32,093 bases of DNA. Origin: a virus. The stretch lies in the IMG/VR virus record IMGVR_UViG_3300031862_000764, positions 1 to 32,093 of that record. One strand, given 5' to 3'. Under the pieces are notes generated by a model, which saw only the letters and a list, made by a program, of their open reading frames with translations, was not told where the DNA came from and did not search any database. Positions 1,728 through 23,735 of this stretch are shown in pieces. The first letter of the stretch is position 1; every line of letters starts with the position of its first letter. Position numbers and translations under genes: made by a program.

Positions 1728-3494
1728 TTAGTCCCTTCTCCTCAACACGAAGTTTAATGCTCCACGAAGCAAATCCTTCGTGATTCCATAAACACGCATC
1801 GTGATGGATCCGAGCCATGTCTCGTGGGCTCGATTTATTTCAATGGTTAAATCATCCAGAAGCTCCAGCTCGATATGACTGATCGGGACGTCTACCTCTA
1901 CCATTTCCGGGATCTGTGCATACTCAGCCAGCATGTTGGTCGCGAGTGCTTCCGCATCTGCCAGGCTATTAAGCAACGTCTGGATCTCGTGCCGCCTGGA
2001 TATTCCATATGTATTGACCATGTTCGCCTCTTGGCTTGCATCGACATGAAGCAGATCCACATTCTCGCTATAGTCGTGGTCGTATCCGATAACGACGGTG
2101 CTGGCAAATTGATTGTTCGGAAATGAGAGCTTGGGCTTGGAGAGGAACTCCTCCTTAGGTATCGATTCCAGGACGGACGTCACGCGATGCAGGTAGCGAA
2201 AAGTGAACTTTCCGTTCGCCTTAGCAAACAGGATTCCATTCAAGGACTGGCAGATCTGGCCTACGATCGTCTCGATGGCGGTTGATTCCGGGACGAATAT
2301 CTGAATATTCGGAGCGCTTGCGAGCGCCGCCGCGAATTCCGCCTGGTCATAGTTGTCGCTGGTATAGGCGATATTTGCATAGCTGGCCAGGAGATCCTTC
2401 ACGACCTCCAATGCGTTCTCGATCAAGGACCCGCCCGATTCATATCCTCGGAGGTCCGCCGTCACCTCATCATCGGGCGAGTAGTCGGCAGGCGGAAGGT
2501 CGAAGGTCGCATTAGCCAGGCTCACGTTTACTGGAATCTTCTCTACCCCCTCTACGCACACGGCATCGATGCCCTGGATTCCGTGAAAGGCGGTGTCGCA
2601 CAGCTTGAAGTGGTAATATGATGGGGAAGTCTCGTCTTCGTTGGTGCAGATCACCGGTACGTTGTCGCAGTATCCATAGGCCAGTGGGATCCTGCGGTTC
2701 GCATTCTCGGCCTTAATATACGGATAGCTGACTGTGTCGAAGATGTTGGGTGGTACGGATCTTGAAAGGCGCTTGCGTTTATCGTTGACTTGGAGGTTCA
2801 GAGTTTCATAGTCGAGCCAGAACTCTTCAATGAGACCCGAATATTGCAGCCTGAACTCAGAATATGGAGCTTCCTCTTCACCGTATAGGATCTTGATTAC
2901 TTGCCCATAAAGCTTCAGCGCGACAATGTGGTCATAGGCCCCATCCTCGTTTCGGATCTGTATCTCACCTCCCCCATACCCGAGAACCCCGTAGTACATC
3001 GGATCCGTCTCGACGGCCAGAGGAGCACAATCCCGCAGCCGCGACTCGTACAGCATTCCTTCGTAATGGCCGGCCTTATTGGCGATATTGATTTGCACGC
3101 CCAACAGAATCGTCGAGAATGCCCACGGCGGCTGGAATCCGTTGAAGTGGATATAGAGGACTCCTTGACCCGTCTCCCACAGGAAGCTTTCGTCGGTGGA
3201 CCGCAGATTGGCCATGCTTGTGACTTCACTGTACAAAGAGCCGTTGACGATGACCGATATGATCTGGGCGGAAGGTTTGCCATTGCCTACCGGACCGGAG
3301 CATGCCTGCTGATGGCAGCCATAGCAGAATGCTCCGTTCTGGTAGCTATATTCCGTGTCGGCGTTCACGAAGTAGTCATAACGCCAGATCCCCGGCTCCG
3401 CGTTGAGGAAGAACGAATGCGGGTCGCTGGATCCGAACTCCACCAAGACCACCTTTGAGGAGATCGGCTTCTGCTTGAACTCCCCGAAGCTCAT
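1728..3494 (-). CDS. Tail tip or baseplate-hub-like protein
   Basis: A 588-residue protein coupled to the gene before it by an ATGA overlap. It is rich in beta-forming and aromatic residues in the first two thirds. Near residues 57-65 there is a Cys-Tyr-Gly-Cys-His group with a further Cys, unusual for a virion protein. The C-terminal third contains alternating acidic and hydrophobic stretches and ends in Arg-Arg-Arg-Asp. Its place after the tape measure and two further tail genes, and directly before the lysis cassette, fits a tail hub, tip or fibre-attachment component of a siphovirus-like tail. No enzymatic motif was recognised. The exact role, hub versus receptor-binding, is not decided. 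Confidence 0.55.
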   Translation of the reverse strand: MSFGEFKQKPISSKVVLVEFGSSDPHSFFLNAEPGIWRYDYFVNADTEYSYQNGAFCYGCHQQACSGPVGNGKPSAQIISVIVNGSLYSEVTSMANLRSTDESFLWETGQGVLYIHFNGFQPPWAFSTILLGVQINIANKAGHYEGMLYESRLRDCAPLAVETDPMYYGVLGYGGGEIQIRNEDGAYDHIVALKLYGQVIKILYGEEEAPYSEFRLQYSGLIEEFWLDYETLNLQVNDKRKRLSRSVPPNIFDTVSYPYIKAENANRRIPLAYGYCDNVPVICTNEDETSPSYYHFKLCDTAFHGIQGIDAVCVEGVEKIPVNVSLANATFDLPPADYSPDDEVTADLRGYESGGSLIENALEVVKDLLASYANIAYTSDNYDQAEFAAALASAPNIQIFVPESTAIETIVGQICQSLNGILFAKANGKFTFRYLHRVTSVLESIPKEEFLSKPKLSFPNNQFASTVVIGYDHDYSENVDLLHVDASQEANMVNTYGISRRHEIQTLLNSLADAEALATNMLAEYAQIPEMVEVDVPISHIELELLDDLTIEINRAHETWLGSITMRVYGITKDLLRGALNFVLRRRD

Positions 3495-5564: not shown

Positions 5565-6317
5565 CTATTTCGCCTCTAGAAAAGCAATCTCCAATTCCCA
5601 CAGGAGCCCACCTTCTTGAACTTTCCGCCACTCCAGTTTGTCTTGGTCAATTCGACAGTAGATCGGCCTCTGCACATCCAGGGAGTTCTCCCAGACGGCT
5701 AGAAACACCGGCTTGATGTTTTCAACCTCCGCCCACATCGCATTGATCGCCTCCTTTTCTTCCTGCTCGATCAATGGAAAGGCGAAGACAGGCGCCAGGA
5801 ACATGTATCCTCGCTCTCCATAAACCTGGCCTGATAGAGAGATCGAGGCGCGCGAAGTAGAAACCCTCGGCAGGTTGAAATTCGGCTCTATCGGCGGCAT
5901 CTGCAAGATGGTGCCCAAGCCGAACCGACCGATGCTAATGTATCCATCCGGGTTGCTGTCGTCATCCAGATAAAACCGCCAGAACCGCTTGGTGGTTTCT
6001 GCAAAAAACACGATCATGATGCCTGCATCCCAGGCAATCGCCTGATCCAGATCAGGGGCCGTCCAAACATTCGTCGGATGCGCTTGGATCTTCACTATGG
6101 CTCCGCTGCTCAGGTTGTGGGCCGCGATGACAGCGCAGGAGGACGTGATTGTTTGGCCGGCGCCGGCGTCAATCATATAGTATTCGTTCGACAGACCAAC
6201 GGTTCTCCAGGGTGAACTTAAGTGAATGTTCTTTACATTGACTGCTGGAAAGTCTGCCTGCTGCGAGCTGTAGAGCGGATCGTATTGATCTACTTTATTA
6301 TCCCATAGGATTCTCAT
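5565..6317 (-). CDS. Distal-tail-like or discoidin-like tail protein
   Basis: A 250-residue protein starting in an ATGA overlap with the tape measure gene. The N-terminal half, with an early Asp-Asn-Lys, a Trp-Arg-Thr segment and a Tyr-Tyr-Met-Ile-Asp strand, reads like a discoidin or carbohydrate-binding jelly roll. The C-terminal half holds a beta-rich domain followed by a helix (Glu-Gln-Glu-Glu-Lys-Glu-Ala) and final strands with Trp. Immediately after a tape measure gene the usual product is the distal tail protein or an equivalent that connects the tube to the tip, and a carbohydrate-binding fold is common there. This name is positional; the fold assignment is an impression from residue pattern only. 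Confidence 0.5.
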   Translation of the reverse strand: MRILWDNKVDQYDPLYSSQQADFPAVNVKNIHLSSPWRTVGLSNEYYMIDAGAGQTITSSCAVIAAHNLSSGAIVKIQAHPTNVWTAPDLDQAIAWDAGIMIVFFAETTKRFWRFYLDDDSNPDGYISIGRFGLGTILQMPPIEPNFNLPRVSTSRASISLSGQVYGERGYMFLAPVFAFPLIEQEEKEAINAMWAEVENIKPVFLAVWENSLDVQRPIYCRIDQDKLEWRKVQEGGLLWELEIAFLEAK

Positions 6318-8356
6318 TGCTTCAGAGCTCCCCGGCTCACCAGGATCCGCCGGTTATCGATTTCTTCCTCCACGAATGCGTTGAACTCCCGACTCCCGAT
6401 ACGCAGAATCATCCGCGAGGGAAGGACTGGGCCGACCGCTCCGAATTGTTCCTTGGGCGTGATCTGTACCCGCTCGCCGCTCTCCGCCAGCATCGGAAAG
6501 CTGTCATTCGGATAGCCCGGAGGAACGATGAAGTCCGCGCCACTAGCAAACTTGGGGATGGGCTGAGAGCTAATTACCGCGATCTGCGCAGCTCCTAAAA
6601 TTCCAGCTAGGGCCGCCATGGCCAGGCCGACGGGGATAAAGGGCTTGGTCTGCAGCGCGCTGATTACCGCATTGGCGGTACCAGTGATCGCTGAAAAAAT
6701 CGCTCCACGCTTTTCAGCCTCCGCAGCCTTGGTCTGCAGTTCGCTACGGCGAGCCTCCATCTCCTTATCCAAGCCCTCAAGGGCCCTCGCCCGCTGATCC
6801 TCATCCGCGATGTTGGCCTCGATCGCCGCCTTCCGGCTCTCATACTCGTTGTCGAGCTGGATCTCCCGGTTCCGAATCGACTGGCTGACGATCGAATCGA
6901 TGGTGCTGAGGCTGGAAGTGACAGCCGAAGAAATCGTCTCCCAGTCGGTTTTCACTTTTTCCACCGATGCGGTTGATGCGTTGCCCAAGGCGACCCATCG
7001 CTCCGCCATCTGTTCGATGCCTTGCTGCAGGGGATCCAGGGCTTCTTCTACGGTTTTTGCAAACGGATCGAATCTCCCCTCCAGTCCTGCAATGTTGGAA
7101 GCCAGGTTCCAGGCCTGCTCCGCGGCCTTCTTTTCCATCTCCGCAAAGGTGCCTAGCACCACTCCTGCCCGGACCCAGCGTTCATTCATCGCCTCGATGC
7201 CGGCATGCAAAGCGGTCTGCCTTTCCTCATCTGCCTGCTGTTGGGCCTTAGTCAGAATAACGTCGGCGGTCTTCACTTCCTCCATCCGCTTCAGTTCTGC
7301 CCTTTCTTCCTGCAGGAACTTGATATTCTCCGCCGCCTGCCTGAGCCGTTCTTCCGTTTGAGCTAGCTGAGCTTTGCTTGCCTCCAACTGGCTGGCGATC
7401 GTGGTGATCTGTGTGGTATAGGCCGAGGTTCCGGCTGTGACTTTCTTGGCTTCCGCATCATAAGCCCGATGCAACTCGTTAACCCGCTTTTCCAGCTGGT
7501 CGCGTAGCTGCAGGTCCGCAAGATTGCTCTTACGCTGAGTCGCCAGGGCCTTATCCACCTCATATACCGTGGAGGCCTCTCCCTTTAGCGCTCGATTCAG
7601 GTTGCGTTTGGCCACCCATGTTTGCAGCGTTACCGTGAGAAATGAAGTCATCTCGCGTATGGCCGGAGCCAGGAACTCCAGAAGGGCTTTGCCACCCTGC
7701 TCCTTGATGTCGGCCATCACGTTGTTGAGCTGTTTTAAGGCCCCCGTATTCGTCTCCGCCATGCTCCGGGACATGCCGCTGAACTTTTTCTGCAGCTCTT
7801 CGATCAGCTGCGCGAGCTTTACGGACTTCGGTGCGGTGGCGTCGATTTGGACTCCGTAGCGCCCGAGGCTGTTGGTCGTGCTGCCCAGGGTCTTGCCGAC
7901 CAGCGAAGCGGCCTGCTCGAGGTCCAGCCCCATGGCAGAGGCGAAATCCTGCACCAGGGGAGTGAGCTGACGCAGGCCTTTTTCATCCAGATCGCCAAGC
8001 TGCTGAAGCATGGCCATGGCTGAGATCGTGGCCTCATCCCCATAGGTGGTGACGGATTGCAGCTGGCCGGCGTAATCATACAGCGCTTGGGTGCTGATCT
8101 CGCCGACCCTGCCGGTCGTCTTGATGGCCGATTGCAGCTTGGCTTCGGCGATCTCCTGCCTCGAATAGGTATCGATCAGGTCTTTAGCGATGCCGTTTAG
8201 TTTCTGAAAAACGATTGCGGCGCCCCAAAGGCCGGCCGCGGAACTGATGAACTTCGTGAAGTTCTTGACTTGCTTCTCGATTCTGTTGATGGCTTTGCGC
8301 GCGTCGGCATCGTCGCCGCGAATCATCAGCAGCAAATCACCCAGCAGCGTGGCCAT
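6314..8356 (-). CDS. Tail tape measure protein
   Basis: A 680-residue, mostly helical protein. The N-terminal part (about 10-260) has the usual tape measure pattern: Lys/Arg-rich start, a Ser-Ala-Ala-Gly hydrophobic helix, then Gly-Asp-Glu-Ala-Thr and Leu-Gly-Ser-Thr-Thr-Asn-Ser-Leu-Gly-Arg-Tyr-Gly. The middle (about 270-560) is long coiled coil, and a hydrophobic Ala-Gly-Ile-Leu-Gly-Ala-Ala stretch lies near 585-605. Tape measures set tail length at roughly 0.15 nm per residue, which would give a short siphovirus tail of about 100 nm. The gene follows the frameshifted chaperone gene after an AAGGTG site and ends in an ATGA overlap with the next tail gene. No lytic domain was seen. Confidence 0.85.
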   Translation of the reverse strand: MATLLGDLLLMIRGDDADARKAINRIEKQVKNFTKFISSAAGLWGAAIVFQKLNGIAKDLIDTYSRQEIAEAKLQSAIKTTGRVGEISTQALYDYAGQLQSVTTYGDEATISAMAMLQQLGDLDEKGLRQLTPLVQDFASAMGLDLEQAASLVGKTLGSTTNSLGRYGVQIDATAPKSVKLAQLIEELQKKFSGMSRSMAETNTGALKQLNNVMADIKEQGGKALLEFLAPAIREMTSFLTVTLQTWVAKRNLNRALKGEASTVYEVDKALATQRKSNLADLQLRDQLEKRVNELHRAYDAEAKKVTAGTSAYTTQITTIASQLEASKAQLAQTEERLRQAAENIKFLQEERAELKRMEEVKTADVILTKAQQQADEERQTALHAGIEAMNERWVRAGVVLGTFAEMEKKAAEQAWNLASNIAGLEGRFDPFAKTVEEALDPLQQGIEQMAERWVALGNASTASVEKVKTDWETISSAVTSSLSTIDSIVSQSIRNREIQLDNEYESRKAAIEANIADEDQRARALEGLDKEMEARRSELQTKAAEAEKRGAIFSAITGTANAVISALQTKPFIPVGLAMAALAGILGAAQIAVISSQPIPKFASGADFIVPPGYPNDSFPMLAESGERVQITPKEQFGAVGPVLPSRMILRIGSREFNAFVEEEIDNRRILVSRGALKQ

Positions 8357-19860: not shown

Positions 19861-19923
19861 AAAAAAGGCGAGGGACCGGCCGGGCACGCCTCGTTAAGGA
19901 CGTGTCCGACTGATCCCTCGCCT
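19861..19923 (-). terminator. Rho-independent terminator with a long apical loop
   Basis: On the minus strand AGGCGAGGGA (19923-19914) pairs perfectly with TCCCTCGCCT (19875-19866), and six T in a row end at 19861. The 38-base loop between them contains smaller self-complementary parts (GGAC/GTCC and a CCGGCCGG palindrome). It would stop transcripts of the replication and accessory genes before the methyltransferase and packaging genes. A second small CCGAC/GTCGG hairpin at 19841-19853 follows downstream. Confidence 0.75.
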
Positions 19924-20160
19924 CCGTATATCTGGTCGGCGATTCGGTCGTTTCTAAGCGATTAAATTACTCGAACTTAAACCAATAGTCAATACCGATA
20001 CGCGGTACAACGACGAGGTTAAGTTGCGCCGCCAAAACAACAATACACAACTATTCGTCAGGTGAAATACGCACTTAGTTAAGTTATTCTCGGCGTCAAC
20101 TTCAACCGCATGTTATGGCGCATCCATTTGGATAAGCCCAGCATGATGAGCAATATCATT
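19924..20160. other. A+T-rich non-coding stretch between the accessory and late genes
   Basis: No protein-like frame with a start and binding site was found on either strand. It contains two copies of GTTAAGTT (20018-20025 and 20078-20085) and is clearly richer in A and T than the genes to its left, matching the neighbouring DUF6602 gene. It may be the flank of an inserted cargo segment. No promoter stands out enough to annotate. Confidence 0.5.
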
Positions 20161-20188
20161 TGATTAAGAGCTTCTGCTTTCTTAATCA
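20161..20188 (-). terminator. Hairpin after the DUF6602 gene
   Basis: TGATTAAGA and TCTTAATCA form a perfect 9-bp stem with a 10-base loop, starting just after the TAA stop (20192-20194) of the gene. The stem is A+T rich and no clear T run follows, so it is a weak terminator or an mRNA 3' protecting hairpin. Confidence 0.45.
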
Positions 20189-20191
20189 TTC

Positions 20192-20938
20192 TTACAATAT
20201 TTTGCCTCTACAATCCTTTTCTGGGTTCATTATGTAGTAGCCAAAAGACGGCCTATTGCGGCCAGACAGAGTGTTTAATATTCCTGCGAGCAGTGACACA
20301 ATTTCATAATGGTTTTCATCCGAAGGGAATACCATCCATTGTGGTTTATTTGATGATCTTAATCCGCTCATAGCATAAGTCCAATAGCCTTTCCCAACAA
20401 TACAGATAGCTGCGAAACAAGGATTGCCGTAGAAATTAGCTTCAACCTCAATAAATCTTTTTAGCTCATCTGGATCTGATACGTCGGAATTGTACGCGAA
20501 AAATACTGGAATTATCCTGGGCAGAAGTGGTGGATCATAATTCTCTAACGGCATTAGGGAAAGAACTTTCTTAGCCTTGGCGATTGAGTTAATAATCTCT
20601 TGGCGAGAAACCGTTGACTTTACTTCGAACCAGTATCTACATGCTTCTATAGGAAAAACTCCTTTTTCGGATGAGAATAGCGCAGGAGGAAGTAAGTCTT
20701 GTTGCCAAATGATCACATCTGATTCTGGAGACTGGGTTCCTAATGAATCTTGGATACTGCCTGACCCAATTCCATGGGTAATGGGCAAGAAATCACGGAT
20801 GAAGTTTCCTAATGTGTACTCCCTGAAAGCGCCCTTTAGTCCGTTGTGTTCAATAGCTTTTGCTAAGTGAGATTCTGCTACCAACTTGCCAGCTTTGGCA
20901 GCGACAAAATCTTGAAAAAACCGGTTCAGGCTTTGCAT
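20192..20938 (-). CDS. DUF6602-like, PD-(D/E)XK-type nuclease-like protein
   Basis: A 248-residue protein with the DUF6602 pattern: Arg-Glu-Tyr with a helix to Phe-Leu-Pro (about 38-52), Gly-Ser-Gly-Ser-Ile-Gln-Asp (58-64), Ser-Asp-Val-Ile-Ile-Trp (73-78) and Phe-Glu-Val-Lys-Ser (104-108). Glu39, Asp74, Glu105 and Lys107 give the spacing of a PD-(D/E)XK nuclease core. Such proteins are found near defence genes, but no activity has been established to my knowledge. The gene is visibly A+T richer than the rest of the window and starts three bases after the truncated SNase gene, with a GAGGAG site inside that gene's end. This suggests a recently acquired cargo gene. Confidence 0.75.
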   Translation of the reverse strand: MQSLNRFFQDFVAAKAGKLVAESHLAKAIEHNGLKGAFREYTLGNFIRDFLPITHGIGSGSIQDSLGTQSPESDVIIWQQDLLPPALFSSEKGVFPIEACRYWFEVKSTVSRQEIINSIAKAKKVLSLMPLENYDPPLLPRIIPVFFAYNSDVSDPDELKRFIEVEANFYGNPCFAAICIVGKGYWTYAMSGLRSSNKPQWMVFPSDENHYEIVSLLAGILNTLSGRNRPSFGYYIMNPEKDCRGKIL

Positions 20939-20940
20939 TC

Positions 20941-21357
20941 TTATGGCTCCTCAATAGAAGGTGCATGTATCTGCTCCAAGCGCCGGTGCGCTTGCTCAGC
21001 GTGATGCGCGTGGTTCTGGGCGCACCCTGAGCCGACCGCTCCCCGAAGATGAGCCACCAAGTCACCACCGAGCGAGCTAAGAAACTCGTTTGGTGCGCCG
21101 GCGAAGGGATCATCCAGGAATCGCTGCCAGTCCACGGCGGCGATACTCTGGAAACGGTCACTGCCTGGTAAGGTGAAGCTCACCTCCGGCGTATCAACAC
21201 CGAGAAAGCGGACCGAGAGATTCCCAGCGGCCTCGACAACAATCGTATCCCCGTCATGAACCTGCTGAACCGGCGACTCGCGTCCGTCGCCATGTCGGCC
21301 TAGCAAGGCCAACCCGACCTTCAACCAGGCCGCCGTTGTCGTGATTGCCTTGGCCAT
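20941..21357 (-). CDS. SNase-domain protein, truncated
   Basis: A 138-residue protein with the N-terminal part of a thermonuclease (SNase) fold: Val-His-Asp-Gly-Asp-Thr-Ile (about 33-39), then Arg-Phe-Leu-Gly-Val-Asp-Thr-Pro-Glu-Val (about 50-59), which hold the calcium-binding and first active-site region. The second half of an SNase domain, with the later catalytic Glu/Arg region and closing strands, is missing. The protein stops after a helix Ala-His-Arg-Arg-Leu-Glu-Gln-Ile at a junction with the A+T-rich next gene. Related proteins I recall are much longer. A GAGGAG site supports the start. It is probably inactive as a nuclease, or has become a binding protein. Confidence 0.7.
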   Translation of the reverse strand: MAKAITTTAAWLKVGLALLGRHGDGRESPVQQVHDGDTIVVEAAGNLSVRFLGVDTPEVSFTLPGSDRFQSIAAVDWQRFLDDPFAGAPNEFLSSLGGDLVAHLRGAVGSGCAQNHAHHAEQAHRRLEQIHAPSIEEP

Positions 21358-21476
21358 CTCAAGCTCTCCTCATGGTGCGTGACGCCGAGCGACTACTACT
21401 ACATTCGCCGTACAGCAAGGTGTCAAGATGGACTCCGCTGTGATGACCTTGCCCACACTCGTTCCTCTTATCGGAA

Positions 21477-21821
21477 CTACAGGCTCTCGAAGAAGAGCCT
21501 GACGTCGCGGGCAGAGTTGGCGTTTGTGAAAGAGGCCCGCACGCGTCCATGGGTATTCTCTTCTCGCACCTCGATAGCTGCAGCTTGGTGATTGTAGCAG
21601 ATGGCATAACGCTTTTCTTTGATCCGCGCCCAGAGAACGTTTTTCATCTCGCCCTCCCGTTCGAAGGCCTTTAGGTCGCGTCCGACGTCCTTTCGCCAGA
21701 CGATAGCGCCGGCGATAGCAAGAGCGATGTCCTCGACATTCGGCGCGTGGTGACCAGCACGATCAAGAACTCCTCCTAGGTACTCGCGGAGCACGTCTAT
21801 GTCAGTTATCGTTCGTGCCAT
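21477..21821 (-). CDS. Unknown small protein (114 residues)
   Basis: The start follows AGGAGG by six bases. It has an N-terminal helix (Asp-Val-Leu-Arg-Glu-Tyr-Leu), a Val-Glu-Asp-Ile-Ala-Leu-Ala-Ile helix, a Gly-Glu-Met-Lys-Asn-Val-Leu-Trp strand and an Ala-Ile-Glu-Val-Arg-Glu strand, ending in Arg-Leu-Phe-Phe-Glu-Ser-Leu. This small alpha-beta pattern resembles hypothetical proteins often carried as single accessory genes (including integron cassettes), but no function is known. It lies between an HNH gene and a truncated SNase gene, separated from the latter by 119 bases in which I see no gene. Confidence 0.65.
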   Translation of the reverse strand: MARTITDIDVLREYLGGVLDRAGHHAPNVEDIALAIAGAIVWRKDVGRDLKAFEREGEMKNVLWARIKEKRYAICYNHQAAAIEVREENTHGRVRASFTNANSARDVRLFFESL

Positions 21822-21888
21822 AAACAACCTCCTCTCAGCTTAGGGGCATTGCAGGGTATTCTTACGCGCGCTCGCCAATCTCGATTGG

Positions 21889-22314
21889 TCATAGCGCTGA
21901 CGATCCGTAGCCGATTGTTCGATTTTCCGCCCGGGGCTTAAGGTCAAGCGGAGTGCCTGCGCTCCGTCCTTGATTCCCGAAGCCGCCATCTTCCCTGGCG
22001 GTCTTCCGGTCATGACAAATCTTCGCCATCGCCTGGTGATTTGCCGGATCCCAGAAACTCCCGCCGCGCGAGACCGGAACGATATGGTCGACGATTGCGG
22101 CGCGCTGGCCGCAGCCGCAGGCACAGAGGGGGTGGCTCCTGAGGTAAGCGGCGGTGTAGCGGCGCCAGCAGCGGTCGTAGCCGCGGCGGGTGGAGGTGGG
22201 GCGGGTGAGCAGGTGAAATCGGTGATACGTAGACGCGTGGACGGGACAGAATCGGCCAACTGTCAGTTCTGGACATCGAGGATGCATGCAGGGGGAGGCT
22301 GGCCTACGAGGCAT
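21889..22314 (-). CDS. HNH endonuclease
   Basis: A 141-residue protein starting in a TGATG overlap with the ATPase gene. The N-terminal part has a Cys/His knuckle (Cys9, Cys14, Cys23, His26). The HNH core follows: His-Pro-Leu-Cys-Ala-Cys-Gly-Cys (61-68), Val-Asp-His-Ile-Val-Pro (75-80), Ala-Asn-His-Gln (91-94) and Cys-His-Asp-Arg-Lys-Thr (100-105). HNH genes of this type usually sit next to the terminase and help packaging cleavage. Here about 3.9 kb of cargo separates it from terS, which suggests insertion between the two or a cargo nuclease. The frame also has a GTG one codon upstream. Confidence 0.85.
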   Translation of the reverse strand: MPRRPASPCMHPRCPELTVGRFCPVHASTYHRFHLLTRPTSTRRGYDRCWRRYTAAYLRSHPLCACGCGQRAAIVDHIVPVSRGGSFWDPANHQAMAKICHDRKTAREDGGFGNQGRSAGTPLDLKPRAENRTIGYGSSAL

Positions 22315-23735
22315 CACCCACCTCGGCGCTCCCGTATGTTAAGGTATTGTCTCAAGGAGGGGTGCACGTAGAACTGATCATGCTGTATTGGGTTGACCGA
22401 CGGGTCGTCGTAGTAGTAGTAAAAGTGCGCTCCTCCGCGTTGGCTAAGGCCAGCACGACCTTGTTTCTTAATGCCGATCACGCCCATGGAAAATAAGTGG
22501 CGGAGTACGCTGGACGGTTGCTCCCTCTGGTTCCCTCTATTCAGAACTGAAGAGACGATCTCCTCAATTTCCCTTGCAGACAGTCGGTGAAGCCGGCCCG
22601 AAAACGCATCCAGCAACTCCTTGATATACGGCACAGTTTTCTTATATTCTATTATCAAGTCCTTGTATTTGCTCTGGCTATAGACAGTCTCTTCAGCCGT
22701 TCTTGTGTCTTCCGGCTCAATAGTCCCATGTGCGTTTTGGATGGCTTGCTCAAGGGCAAACCGAACGAACGAGATGATGTCTCGCGGCCTCTTGAACGTT
22801 CGATCGATTATGTACTTCTCCGCTGATGCGCGGCTTCGGTAAGGTCTGTTTGAGAATAGACCTCGCCAGATCGCTCCGGGTGGTTTGCCTTCAAGATGGA
22901 GCGAGACGCGAACACGTTCAGCGACTACCGCCTTGAGTTCCTCGTCTGACCACCTCAGAGGCTCCTCATGCTGCCTAAGTTTATCCTGATCATCGAAGAA
23001 CAGATTGTCGTATATGTCCGACCTCAGAAAGACGGTTGTCGTGATTCTTCCGTTCATTCGTGCGTTGATGTCGTGAGCAGCCTTGAGTAGTCCCACTATT
23101 AGAAAGCGAGATCGCTCGCTTCCATCCCAACTGTCATCAAGTCGATCCGCCAGCAACCTAACTGAGGCGTTGGGCCGCTCCGTTTCAAGCCAGTAAATCA
23201 ACTCCTCTATGACTCGCAAGGGTGTGGCGACGCTGCCACTGAATTCAAACGACACCCATTGGGTCTTGATCCCTGCAAGAGCCCTTTTCGCTTTTTCGAT
23301 TAAGTTGTATAGCCAGTCATCTCGTCCAGGTGCAAACGCGTCGCGCATGTACTGATAGTACTTGAAGAGCGGTGAGGACTTCTTCACTAGGCCCTGCTCG
23401 TTGAGCTTCCATACGACTGCGGACAGAAGGGTCATCTTCCAGGCATTAGTATGGGCTTGTTGAGGTAGGATGCCTTTCTCTTCATAGTCCCTCAGAGCGC
23501 TCCATGAGTACTGGTCCGGCGTGACAGTGACGACATGGGTGCCTTCATTTGGGAGCTCTTTGGAGAGTTGCGCGAAGATCGCAGACTTGCCAGCGCCCTT
23601 TCGACCTATGATGATGCTCTTCGATCCGTCCTTGGCTCTCTTGTATTGTTCCGTTCTTAGGAAATACTCTGAAAGCCTGGCGTCAATTTCGGCCTCATCC
23701 TTCCCAAGGTCGATTCTTGTCAAGTCGAGCCGCAT
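22314..23735 (-). CDS. P-loop ATPase, Sll1717-like
   Basis: A 473-residue ATPase starting after GGGAGAGG. It has a Walker A Gly-Arg-Lys-Gly-Ala-Gly-Lys-Ser (44-51), a Walker B-like Leu-Ala-Asp-Arg-Leu-Asp-Asp-Ser-Trp-Asp-Gly (195-205), and the family feature Phe-Leu-Arg-Ser-Asp-Ile-Tyr-Asp-Asn-Leu (236-245) followed by Arg-Trp-Ser-Asp-Glu-Glu-Leu (261-267). The C-terminal third looks like a winged-helix region, with a poly-Tyr strand. Proteins with this layout (P-loop ATPase of the Sll1717 group, near KAP/STAND ATPases) are often encoded in defence islands. Codons are less G+C rich than in the replication and virion genes, a sign of different origin. It would act in the cytoplasm; the target is unknown. 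Confidence 0.8.
   Translation of the reverse strand: MRLDLTRIDLGKDEAEIDARLSEYFLRTEQYKRAKDGSKSIIIGRKGAGKSAIFAQLSKELPNEGTHVVTVTPDQYSWSALRDYEEKGILPQQAHTNAWKMTLLSAVVWKLNEQGLVKKSSPLFKYYQYMRDAFAPGRDDWLYNLIEKAKRALAGIKTQWVSFEFSGSVATPLRVIEELIYWLETERPNASVRLLADRLDDSWDGSERSRFLIVGLLKAAHDINARMNGRITTTVFLRSDIYDNLFFDDQDKLRQHEEPLRWSDEELKAVVAERVRVSLHLEGKPPGAIWRGLFSNRPYRSRASAEKYIIDRTFKRPRDIISFVRFALEQAIQNAHGTIEPEDTRTAEETVYSQSKYKDLIIEYKKTVPYIKELLDAFSGRLHRLSAREIEEIVSSVLNRGNQREQPSSVLRHLFSMGVIGIKKQGRAGLSQRGGAHFYYYYDDPSVNPIQHDQFYVHPSLRQYLNIRERRGG

What the first reader, a model, noticed from the sequence alone, without database searches (positions are those of the whole stretch)
20192..23735. Candidate cargo or superinfection-exclusion block
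Between replication and packaging genes lie a Sll1717-like ATPase, HNH nuclease, a 114-residue unknown, an SNase fragment and a DUF6602 nuclease-like protein, with differing base composition and tight, stop-start spacing. ATPase plus PD-(D/E)XK-like nuclease is a common design of anti-phage systems. The HNH gene, normally beside terS, is displaced by about 3.9 kb, consistent with insertion. This is the most likely place for an undescribed system in the window.
Basis: partly seen in the sequence, partly recalled or inferred. Interest (0 to 1): 0.7.

Follow-up and report, generated by a model that had tools for sequence, protein, structure and literature searches.

The report
Integron nuclease cassette inside a phage
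An uncultured phage carries, in a patch of acquired genes, a DNA-cutting enzyme related to the bacterial immune nuclease NucC on what looks like an integron gene cassette, its attC site still attached; phages are known to pick up such cassettes, but this cargo was not found in the papers we could search.

Summary
The five genes are real, and all differ in composition from the phage core, but they are not one system. The last part (about 19,940-20,967, minus strand) is a separate acquisition: a ~40% GC segment with one gene, DUF6602, followed by an attC site, the recombination site of integron gene cassettes. That site fits AAC-N9-AAGYYGACGCC...GGCGCRRCTTAA-N7-GTT exactly. It scores +19.8 bits on a model trained on 48 independent viral attC sites, against at best -12.4 in 4.3 Mb (both strands) of other fetched loci. 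The segment ends an SNase-like gene at 20,968, where GC drops. DUF6602 is by sequence a NucC-superfamily nuclease (profile E 7e-31 to solved NucC) with the D/E/K residues conserved. The 114-residue "unknown" belongs to the integron-cassette family VCH_CASS14 (PDB 3imo). The Sll1717-family ATPase is an unrelated acquisition: it was not found above cut-off in 25 relatives or in 8 DUF6602 plasmids. Two of 80 terminase relatives also carry attC-type cassettes. So "cargo" is right and "ATPase plus nuclease system" is not supported. Anti-phage or superinfection exclusion is plausible, because integron cassettes are rich in defence genes, but untested. Phage-borne attC sites are already known.

The parts
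22314..23735 (-). P-loop ATPase, Sll1717 family, intact (Walker A GRKGAGKS); separate acquisition, 52% GC
   Evidence: NF047389 293 bits; 57.5% identical to a Nostoc plasmid protein; GC3 0.60
21889..22317 (-). HNH endonuclease of the kind that sits next to terS in relatives
   Evidence: phrog_144 E 2e-27; HNH beside TerS in relatives
21477..21821 (-). VCH_CASS14 family protein (integron cassette protein family)
   Evidence: PF18315 E 1.7e-30; PDB 3imo E 9e-27; phrog_5959 E 2e-17
20941..21357 (-). SNase-like gene, cut off after residue ~130; the matching C-terminal ~200 aa of the relative are absent from the window
   Evidence: 41% identity to a 328-aa Vibrio protein ending at 20968
19940..20967 (-). 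AT-rich foreign segment: DUF6602 gene plus attC site
   Evidence: 40-nt GC windows fall from ~0.65 to ~0.42 at 20980-20940 and rise again at 19940
20192..20938 (-). DUF6602 protein, NucC-superfamily PD-(D/E)XK nuclease, D74/E105/K107 conserved
   Evidence: PF20247; PADLOC NucC 1e-11; PDB NucC 1.4e-7 single sequence, 6.9e-31 profile; invariant residues
20009..20114 (-). attC recombination site: AAC, L'' with two extrahelical bases, 59-nt loop, L', GTT
19866..19923 (-). inverted repeat followed by a T run: likely intrinsic terminator closing the transcription unit
   Evidence: inverted repeat I1, 23-nt arms; TTTTTT follows on the minus strand; not reported by the consensus scan, whose loop limit is 8 nt

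Best explanation
The block is an accessory region of a tailed-phage genome built from at least two independent acquisitions beside the packaging genes. Its last gene, DUF6602, is an integron-type gene cassette: one promoter-less ORF with its own attC site, which arrived with a ~1 kb AT-rich segment that replaced the 3' part of an SNase-like gene (shown by homology break, GC break and attC anatomy). The gene starts 2 nt after the SNase stop codon and ends before a terminator-like repeat, so it is probably expressed by read-through from the phage operon (inferred). The protein is most likely a DNA endonuclease of the NucC superfamily (homology and catalytic residues shown; activity inferred). 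The most likely benefit is attack on competing or host DNA during infection, as with defence cassettes of bacterial integrons (inferred, about 35%).
For: attC: a strict structural scan finds one site in the window and a looser one still only one. In 4.3 Mb of strand-bases no shuffle has a perfect hit, and the only other perfect hits are Tetrasphaera phage TJE1 (a phage with published attC sites, PMC9892861) and relative L008. The window site fits the full pattern exactly, against 0 in 4.33 Mb of other loci; PSSM +19.8 against at best -12.4. The comparison set is 49 attC sites in viral contigs, 46 with AAC/GTT cores where random placement gives 4%. Foreign segment: SNase homology stops at 20968, where GC falls; GC3 0.39 against 0.83-0.87. 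NucC homology. Integron cassettes in bacteria are rich in anti-phage genes (PMC12409362) and phages carry attC clusters (PMC9892861).
Against: No GTTRRRY marks the 5' side of the segment, and the core boxes CCATAAC/GTTGTAC miss the full 7-mer consensus, so integrase-made insertion is not shown. The missing SNase C-terminus means deletion or replacement accompanied the insertion. No integron integrase or other tyrosine recombinase was found in the record. The single-strand fold is not more stable than shuffles (z -0.5 and -1.05). No DUF6602 relative was seen next to an attC elsewhere. The AlphaFold model failed (pLDDT 36), so the fold rests on sequence. Nothing tests expression or function.
Confidence: 0.7

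Rival explanations
1. The five genes form one anti-phage or superinfection-exclusion system with the Sll1717 ATPase as sensor and the DUF6602 nuclease as effector.
For: Contiguous, same strand, in part tightly spaced. The ATPase has weak similarity to PADLOC candidates PDC-M28C and mad8 and to NF053860 anti-phage protein far below its cut-off (40.9 against 370 bits). The nuclease is NucC-like.
Against: GC3 0.60 against 0.39 and a compositional break inside the block at 20968. No co-occurrence in 8 DUF6602 plasmids. ATPase without DUF6602 on the Nostoc plasmid, and a distant ATPase relative on plasmid F lies beside a Tn3-family transposase. SNase is truncated. HNH belongs to the packaging module.
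Confidence: 0.07
2. DUF6602 is an inert passenger: the segment was caught by illegitimate recombination and is not yet selected, in a gene (SNase) that it broke.
For: Truncated SNase, degenerate core boxes, unique to this contig among the fetched loci.
Against: The ORF is intact at family length with catalytic residues kept, starts 2 nt after the upstream stop codon, and is followed by a terminator-like repeat.
Confidence: 0.25
3. DUF6602 works as a NucC-type effector switched on by cyclic nucleotides made by the host's CBASS or type III CRISPR system, so that the phage exploits or tampers with host immunity.
For: NucC homology at profile E 6.9e-31; NucC is activated by cA3 (PMC8682760).
Against: No cyclase model matched the window proteins scanned with PADLOC. 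The single-sequence match covers only the nuclease core (18-135) and the profile matches end by residue 215, so the cA3 pocket was not tested. A host-killing nuclease would usually harm the phage too.
Confidence: 0.1
4. The attC-like repeat is a chance hairpin or terminator, and DUF6602 came by ordinary phage recombination.
For: Core boxes are imperfect and the 5' boundary is not typical.
Against: Exact fit to the anatomy including both spacers; 0 in 4.33 Mb elsewhere; 32-bit gap to the next best score.
Confidence: 0.07

Closest known systems
attC clusters without integrase in phages (CALINs; Qi et al. 2023, PMC9892861)
   Same: attC site with attached cassette gene in a phage genome and no integrase found
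   Different: Single attC (CALINs there have at least two); cargo is a NucC-superfamily nuclease, whereas the cargo highlighted there is DNA methyltransferases; site lies inside a broken SNase gene
Anti-phage integron cassettes of bacteria (Darracq et al. 2025; Kieffer et al. 2025; Getz et al. 2025; read through PMC12409362 and PMC12444791)
   Same: Small single-gene cassette with a plausible defence nuclease
   Different: Located in a phage, not in a bacterial integron; function not tested
NucC, CBASS and type III CRISPR effector nuclease (PDB 7zgv, 6uxf, 6p7o)
   Same: Homologous nuclease core, D/E/K catalytic residues in the same places
   Different: No cyclase or Cas10 found in the window; ligand pocket not examined; separate Pfam family DUF6602
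Sll1717-family P-loop ATPases (NF047389)
   Same: ATPase at 22314 is a full-length member, 57.5% identical to a Nostoc plasmid protein
   Different: No paper naming the family was found in the library searched; no partner gene shown

Membership tests
attC site | AAC and GTT core triplets at the correct spacing | tested here: met
   AAC-N9 and N7-GTT exactly as in most of the 49 viral comparators
attC site | imperfect inverted repeat L''/L' with extrahelical bases | tested here: met
   GGTT-g-AAGTTG-a-CGCCG pairs with CGGCGCAACTTAACC
attC site | full 7-mer cores RYYYAAC / GTTRRRY (common, not obligatory) | tested here: inconclusive
   Window CCATAAC/GTTGTAC do not fit; only 10 of the 49 comparison sites fit both
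attC site | recombined by an integron integrase | not testable with these tools
   needs the attC x attI assay
Complete integron | intI gene and attI | tested here: not met
   no TIGR02249 or PF00589 match in the 32-kb record
CALIN | at least two attC sites in a cluster | tested here: not met
   one site only in the window
DUF6602 (PF20247) | match over the gathering score | tested here: met
   75.8 bits against 27
NucC superfamily nuclease | homologous core with D...ExK residues | tested here: met
   D74, E105, K107 invariant in the 8-sequence alignment; PDB NucC E 6.9e-31
NucC proper (CBASS/CRISPR effector) | cyclic trinucleotide binding and neighbouring cyclase | tested here: inconclusive
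   no cyclase model matched the window proteins scanned; ligand pocket not testable here
Sll1717 ATPase (NF047389) | match over the curated cut-off, full length | tested here: met
   293 bits against 75, model positions 1-454 of 454
Two-gene ATPase + nuclease defence system | recurrent co-occurrence of the two families | tested here: not met
   0 of 8 DUF6602 plasmids carry the ATPase over cut-off; small sample

The most novel reading that the evidence does not exclude
This phage lineage repeatedly draws exchangeable cargo from host integrons into the region upstream of its packaging genes, and here the cargo is a stand-alone NucC-type nuclease used against competing phages, i.e. a bacterial defence cassette turned into a phage weapon.
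Probability: 0.2. Interest if true: 0.75.

Novelty: new member of a known kind. Interest (0 to 1): 0.5.

Why it matters
It links two recent findings: bacterial integrons store anti-phage genes, and phages carry attC sites. A phage that carries a NucC-family nuclease with its attC still attached shows a concrete route by which integron defence cassettes could move on phages, and gives a testable cassette. It also gives DUF6602, a domain of unknown function, a likely activity as a NucC-superfamily nuclease.

Tried and rejected
Searches with DUF6602 alone in viral and genome contigs gave one weak locus and none. ATPase searches in viral and genome contigs gave none. AAA_24 and CASS14 in viral contigs gave none, so no close relative with an empty site at this exact place was obtained. 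Rfam and tRNA scans of the window were empty. A blastn of the attC against plasmids was uninformative. The single-sequence AlphaFold model of DUF6602 was useless and was not searched. A canonical core-box scan was too strict to see the window site, which led to the looser structural scan and the PSSM. The displaced-HNH argument for a single insertion was rejected after reading gene order in relatives. The idea that CASS14 is itself still a cassette was not supported: no attC was found beside it.

Full report
What was claimed and what is there. The window is a 32,093-base viral record. Structural and packaging genes lie on the minus strand below about 19.7 kb (TerL, TerS, Mu-type portal) and replication genes above about 23.8 kb (AAA_24, PD-(D/E)XK nuclease, primase, RecD2). 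Their codon usage departs from the core: GC3 0.83-0.87 in eight core genes against 0.60-0.68 for ATPase, HNH, CASS14 and SNase and 0.39 for DUF6602.

The block is not uniform. In 40-nt windows GC falls from about 0.65 to 0.42 at 20,980-20,940 and stays low to about 19,940. The SNase ORF is 41% identical over 120 residues to a 328-residue Vibrio plasmid protein, and that similarity stops at 20,968; the C-terminal ~200 residues of the relative have no counterpart in the window. A separate AT-rich segment of about 1 kb therefore ends the SNase gene. It supplies the stop codon, and DUF6602 starts two bases later.

The segment ends in an attC site. Reading 20,125-19,995 on the minus strand shows AAC, nine bases, AAGTTGACGCC, a loop, GGCGCAACTTAA, seven bases, GTT. 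The two arms pair over 15 base pairs, with two extrahelical bases on the 5' arm and a 59-nt loop. A strict scan for this architecture finds one site in the window; with one mismatch and variable arm lengths it still finds only this site. Over 4.3 Mb of strand-bases from the session's other loci the only other perfect hits are in Tetrasphaera phage TJE1, a phage with published, experimentally recombining attC sites (PMC9892861), and in L008; no block-shuffled control has a perfect hit.

Independent comparison. A scan of 2.9 million viral contigs for the L''/L' motif returned 41 stretches with 49 sites, 46 of them with AAC and GTT cores in the flanks, where random placement gives 4%. The window is not among them. 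A two-part PSSM trained on 48 of them gives the window site +19.8 bits; the best score in the non-selected loci is -12.4, in L026, itself a probable attC. The attC identification is therefore strong. What is not shown is integrase action: no GTTRRRY lies at the 5' side, and no integron integrase or other tyrosine recombinase was found in the record.

The cassette gene. DUF6602 is homologous to NucC, the DNA endonuclease effector of CBASS and some type III CRISPR systems: E 1.4e-7 with the single sequence, 6.9e-31 with a profile of eight sequences, PADLOC NucC 1e-11. D74, E105 and K107, the D...ExK residues, are invariant. From general knowledge these correspond to NucC's catalytic D73, E104 and K106; no held paper confirmed the numbers. 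No cyclase model matched the window proteins scanned with PADLOC, so if it is regulated like NucC the signal must come from the host. Relatives on plasmids of Xanthomonas, Klebsiella, Paracoccus, Acinetobacter, Rhodococcus and Janthinobacterium lie in varied neighbourhoods, one beside an Abi-family gene, none with the ATPase.

The neighbours. The 114-residue protein is VCH_CASS14, a family named for a Vibrio cholerae integron cassette protein of solved structure; it also has a PHROG, and no attC lies beside it here. The ATPase is a full-length Sll1717-family member, 57.5% identical to a Nostoc plasmid protein, with a distant relative on plasmid F beside a Tn3-family transposase. It was not found over cut-off in 25 related viral records.

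Relatives and the empty site. Of 80 loci fetched by TerL and 80 by MTase, none carries ATPase, CASS14, SNase or DUF6602 relatives, while MTase, HNH, TerS and TerL recur. In relatives HNH sits next to TerS, as MTase-HNH-TerS-TerL or HNH-TerS followed by MTase; in the window the MTase is next to TerS and HNH is upstream of the cargo. One insertion does not explain this. No relative close enough to show the exact empty site was found. Two TerL relatives carry attC-type cassettes of their own: L008 (5,205-5,757, two small ORFs separated by an attC) and L026 (1,738-2,219, a textbook cassette followed by the next ORF). Their genes have no family match.

How it most likely works. Shown: segment boundaries, attC anatomy, nuclease homology and residues, foreign composition. 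Inferred: expression by read-through from the phage operon up to a terminator-like repeat at 19,866-19,923; DNA cleavage; benefit against rivals or host. Integron cassettes in Vibrio include many anti-phage genes (at least 16 of 179 tested in V. cholerae, as reviewed in PMC12409362), so a defence origin is plausible, at about one in three.

Novelty. Phage-borne attC sites and cassettes are known (PMC9892861). No paper in the library mentions DUF6602 or Sll1717, though subscription journals are mostly missing from it. This is a new member of a known kind with unusual cargo.

Noticed in passing
L026:1488-3376: TerL relative with a textbook integron cassette (GTTAGGC, 107-aa ORF, attC, next ORF) and, divergent beside it, a XerC/D-like tyrosine recombinase that is not an integron integrase (TIGR02249 18.9 bits, cut-off 265).
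   Followed up: partly
L008:5173-5757: Another TerL relative with an attC between two small ORFs and a GTTAGGC upstream: a short cassette array a few kb upstream of HNH-TerS-TerL.
   Followed up: partly
L184-L224: 41 IMG/VR stretches with 49 attC sites of one sequence type (AACAATTCATTCAAGCCGACGCC...), several with two or three sites; their cargo genes were not annotated.
   Followed up: partly
window 20935-20947 and 20108-20119: GCCATAA occurs on the minus strand only just upstream of the DUF6602 start and in the attC R'' box, a short direct repeat around the gene; its complement lies at the CASS14 start (21817-21823). May be chance.
   Followed up: no
L083, L084: On two Xanthomonas plasmids DUF6602 is followed by a small HD/phosphohydrolase gene (34 and 16 nt downstream), a possible two-gene unit.
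   Followed up: no
window 1728-3494, 5565-6317 and 6314-8356: Tail-region genes also have lower GC3 (0.64-0.71) than the core; no Pfam match for the two that were scanned.
   Followed up: no
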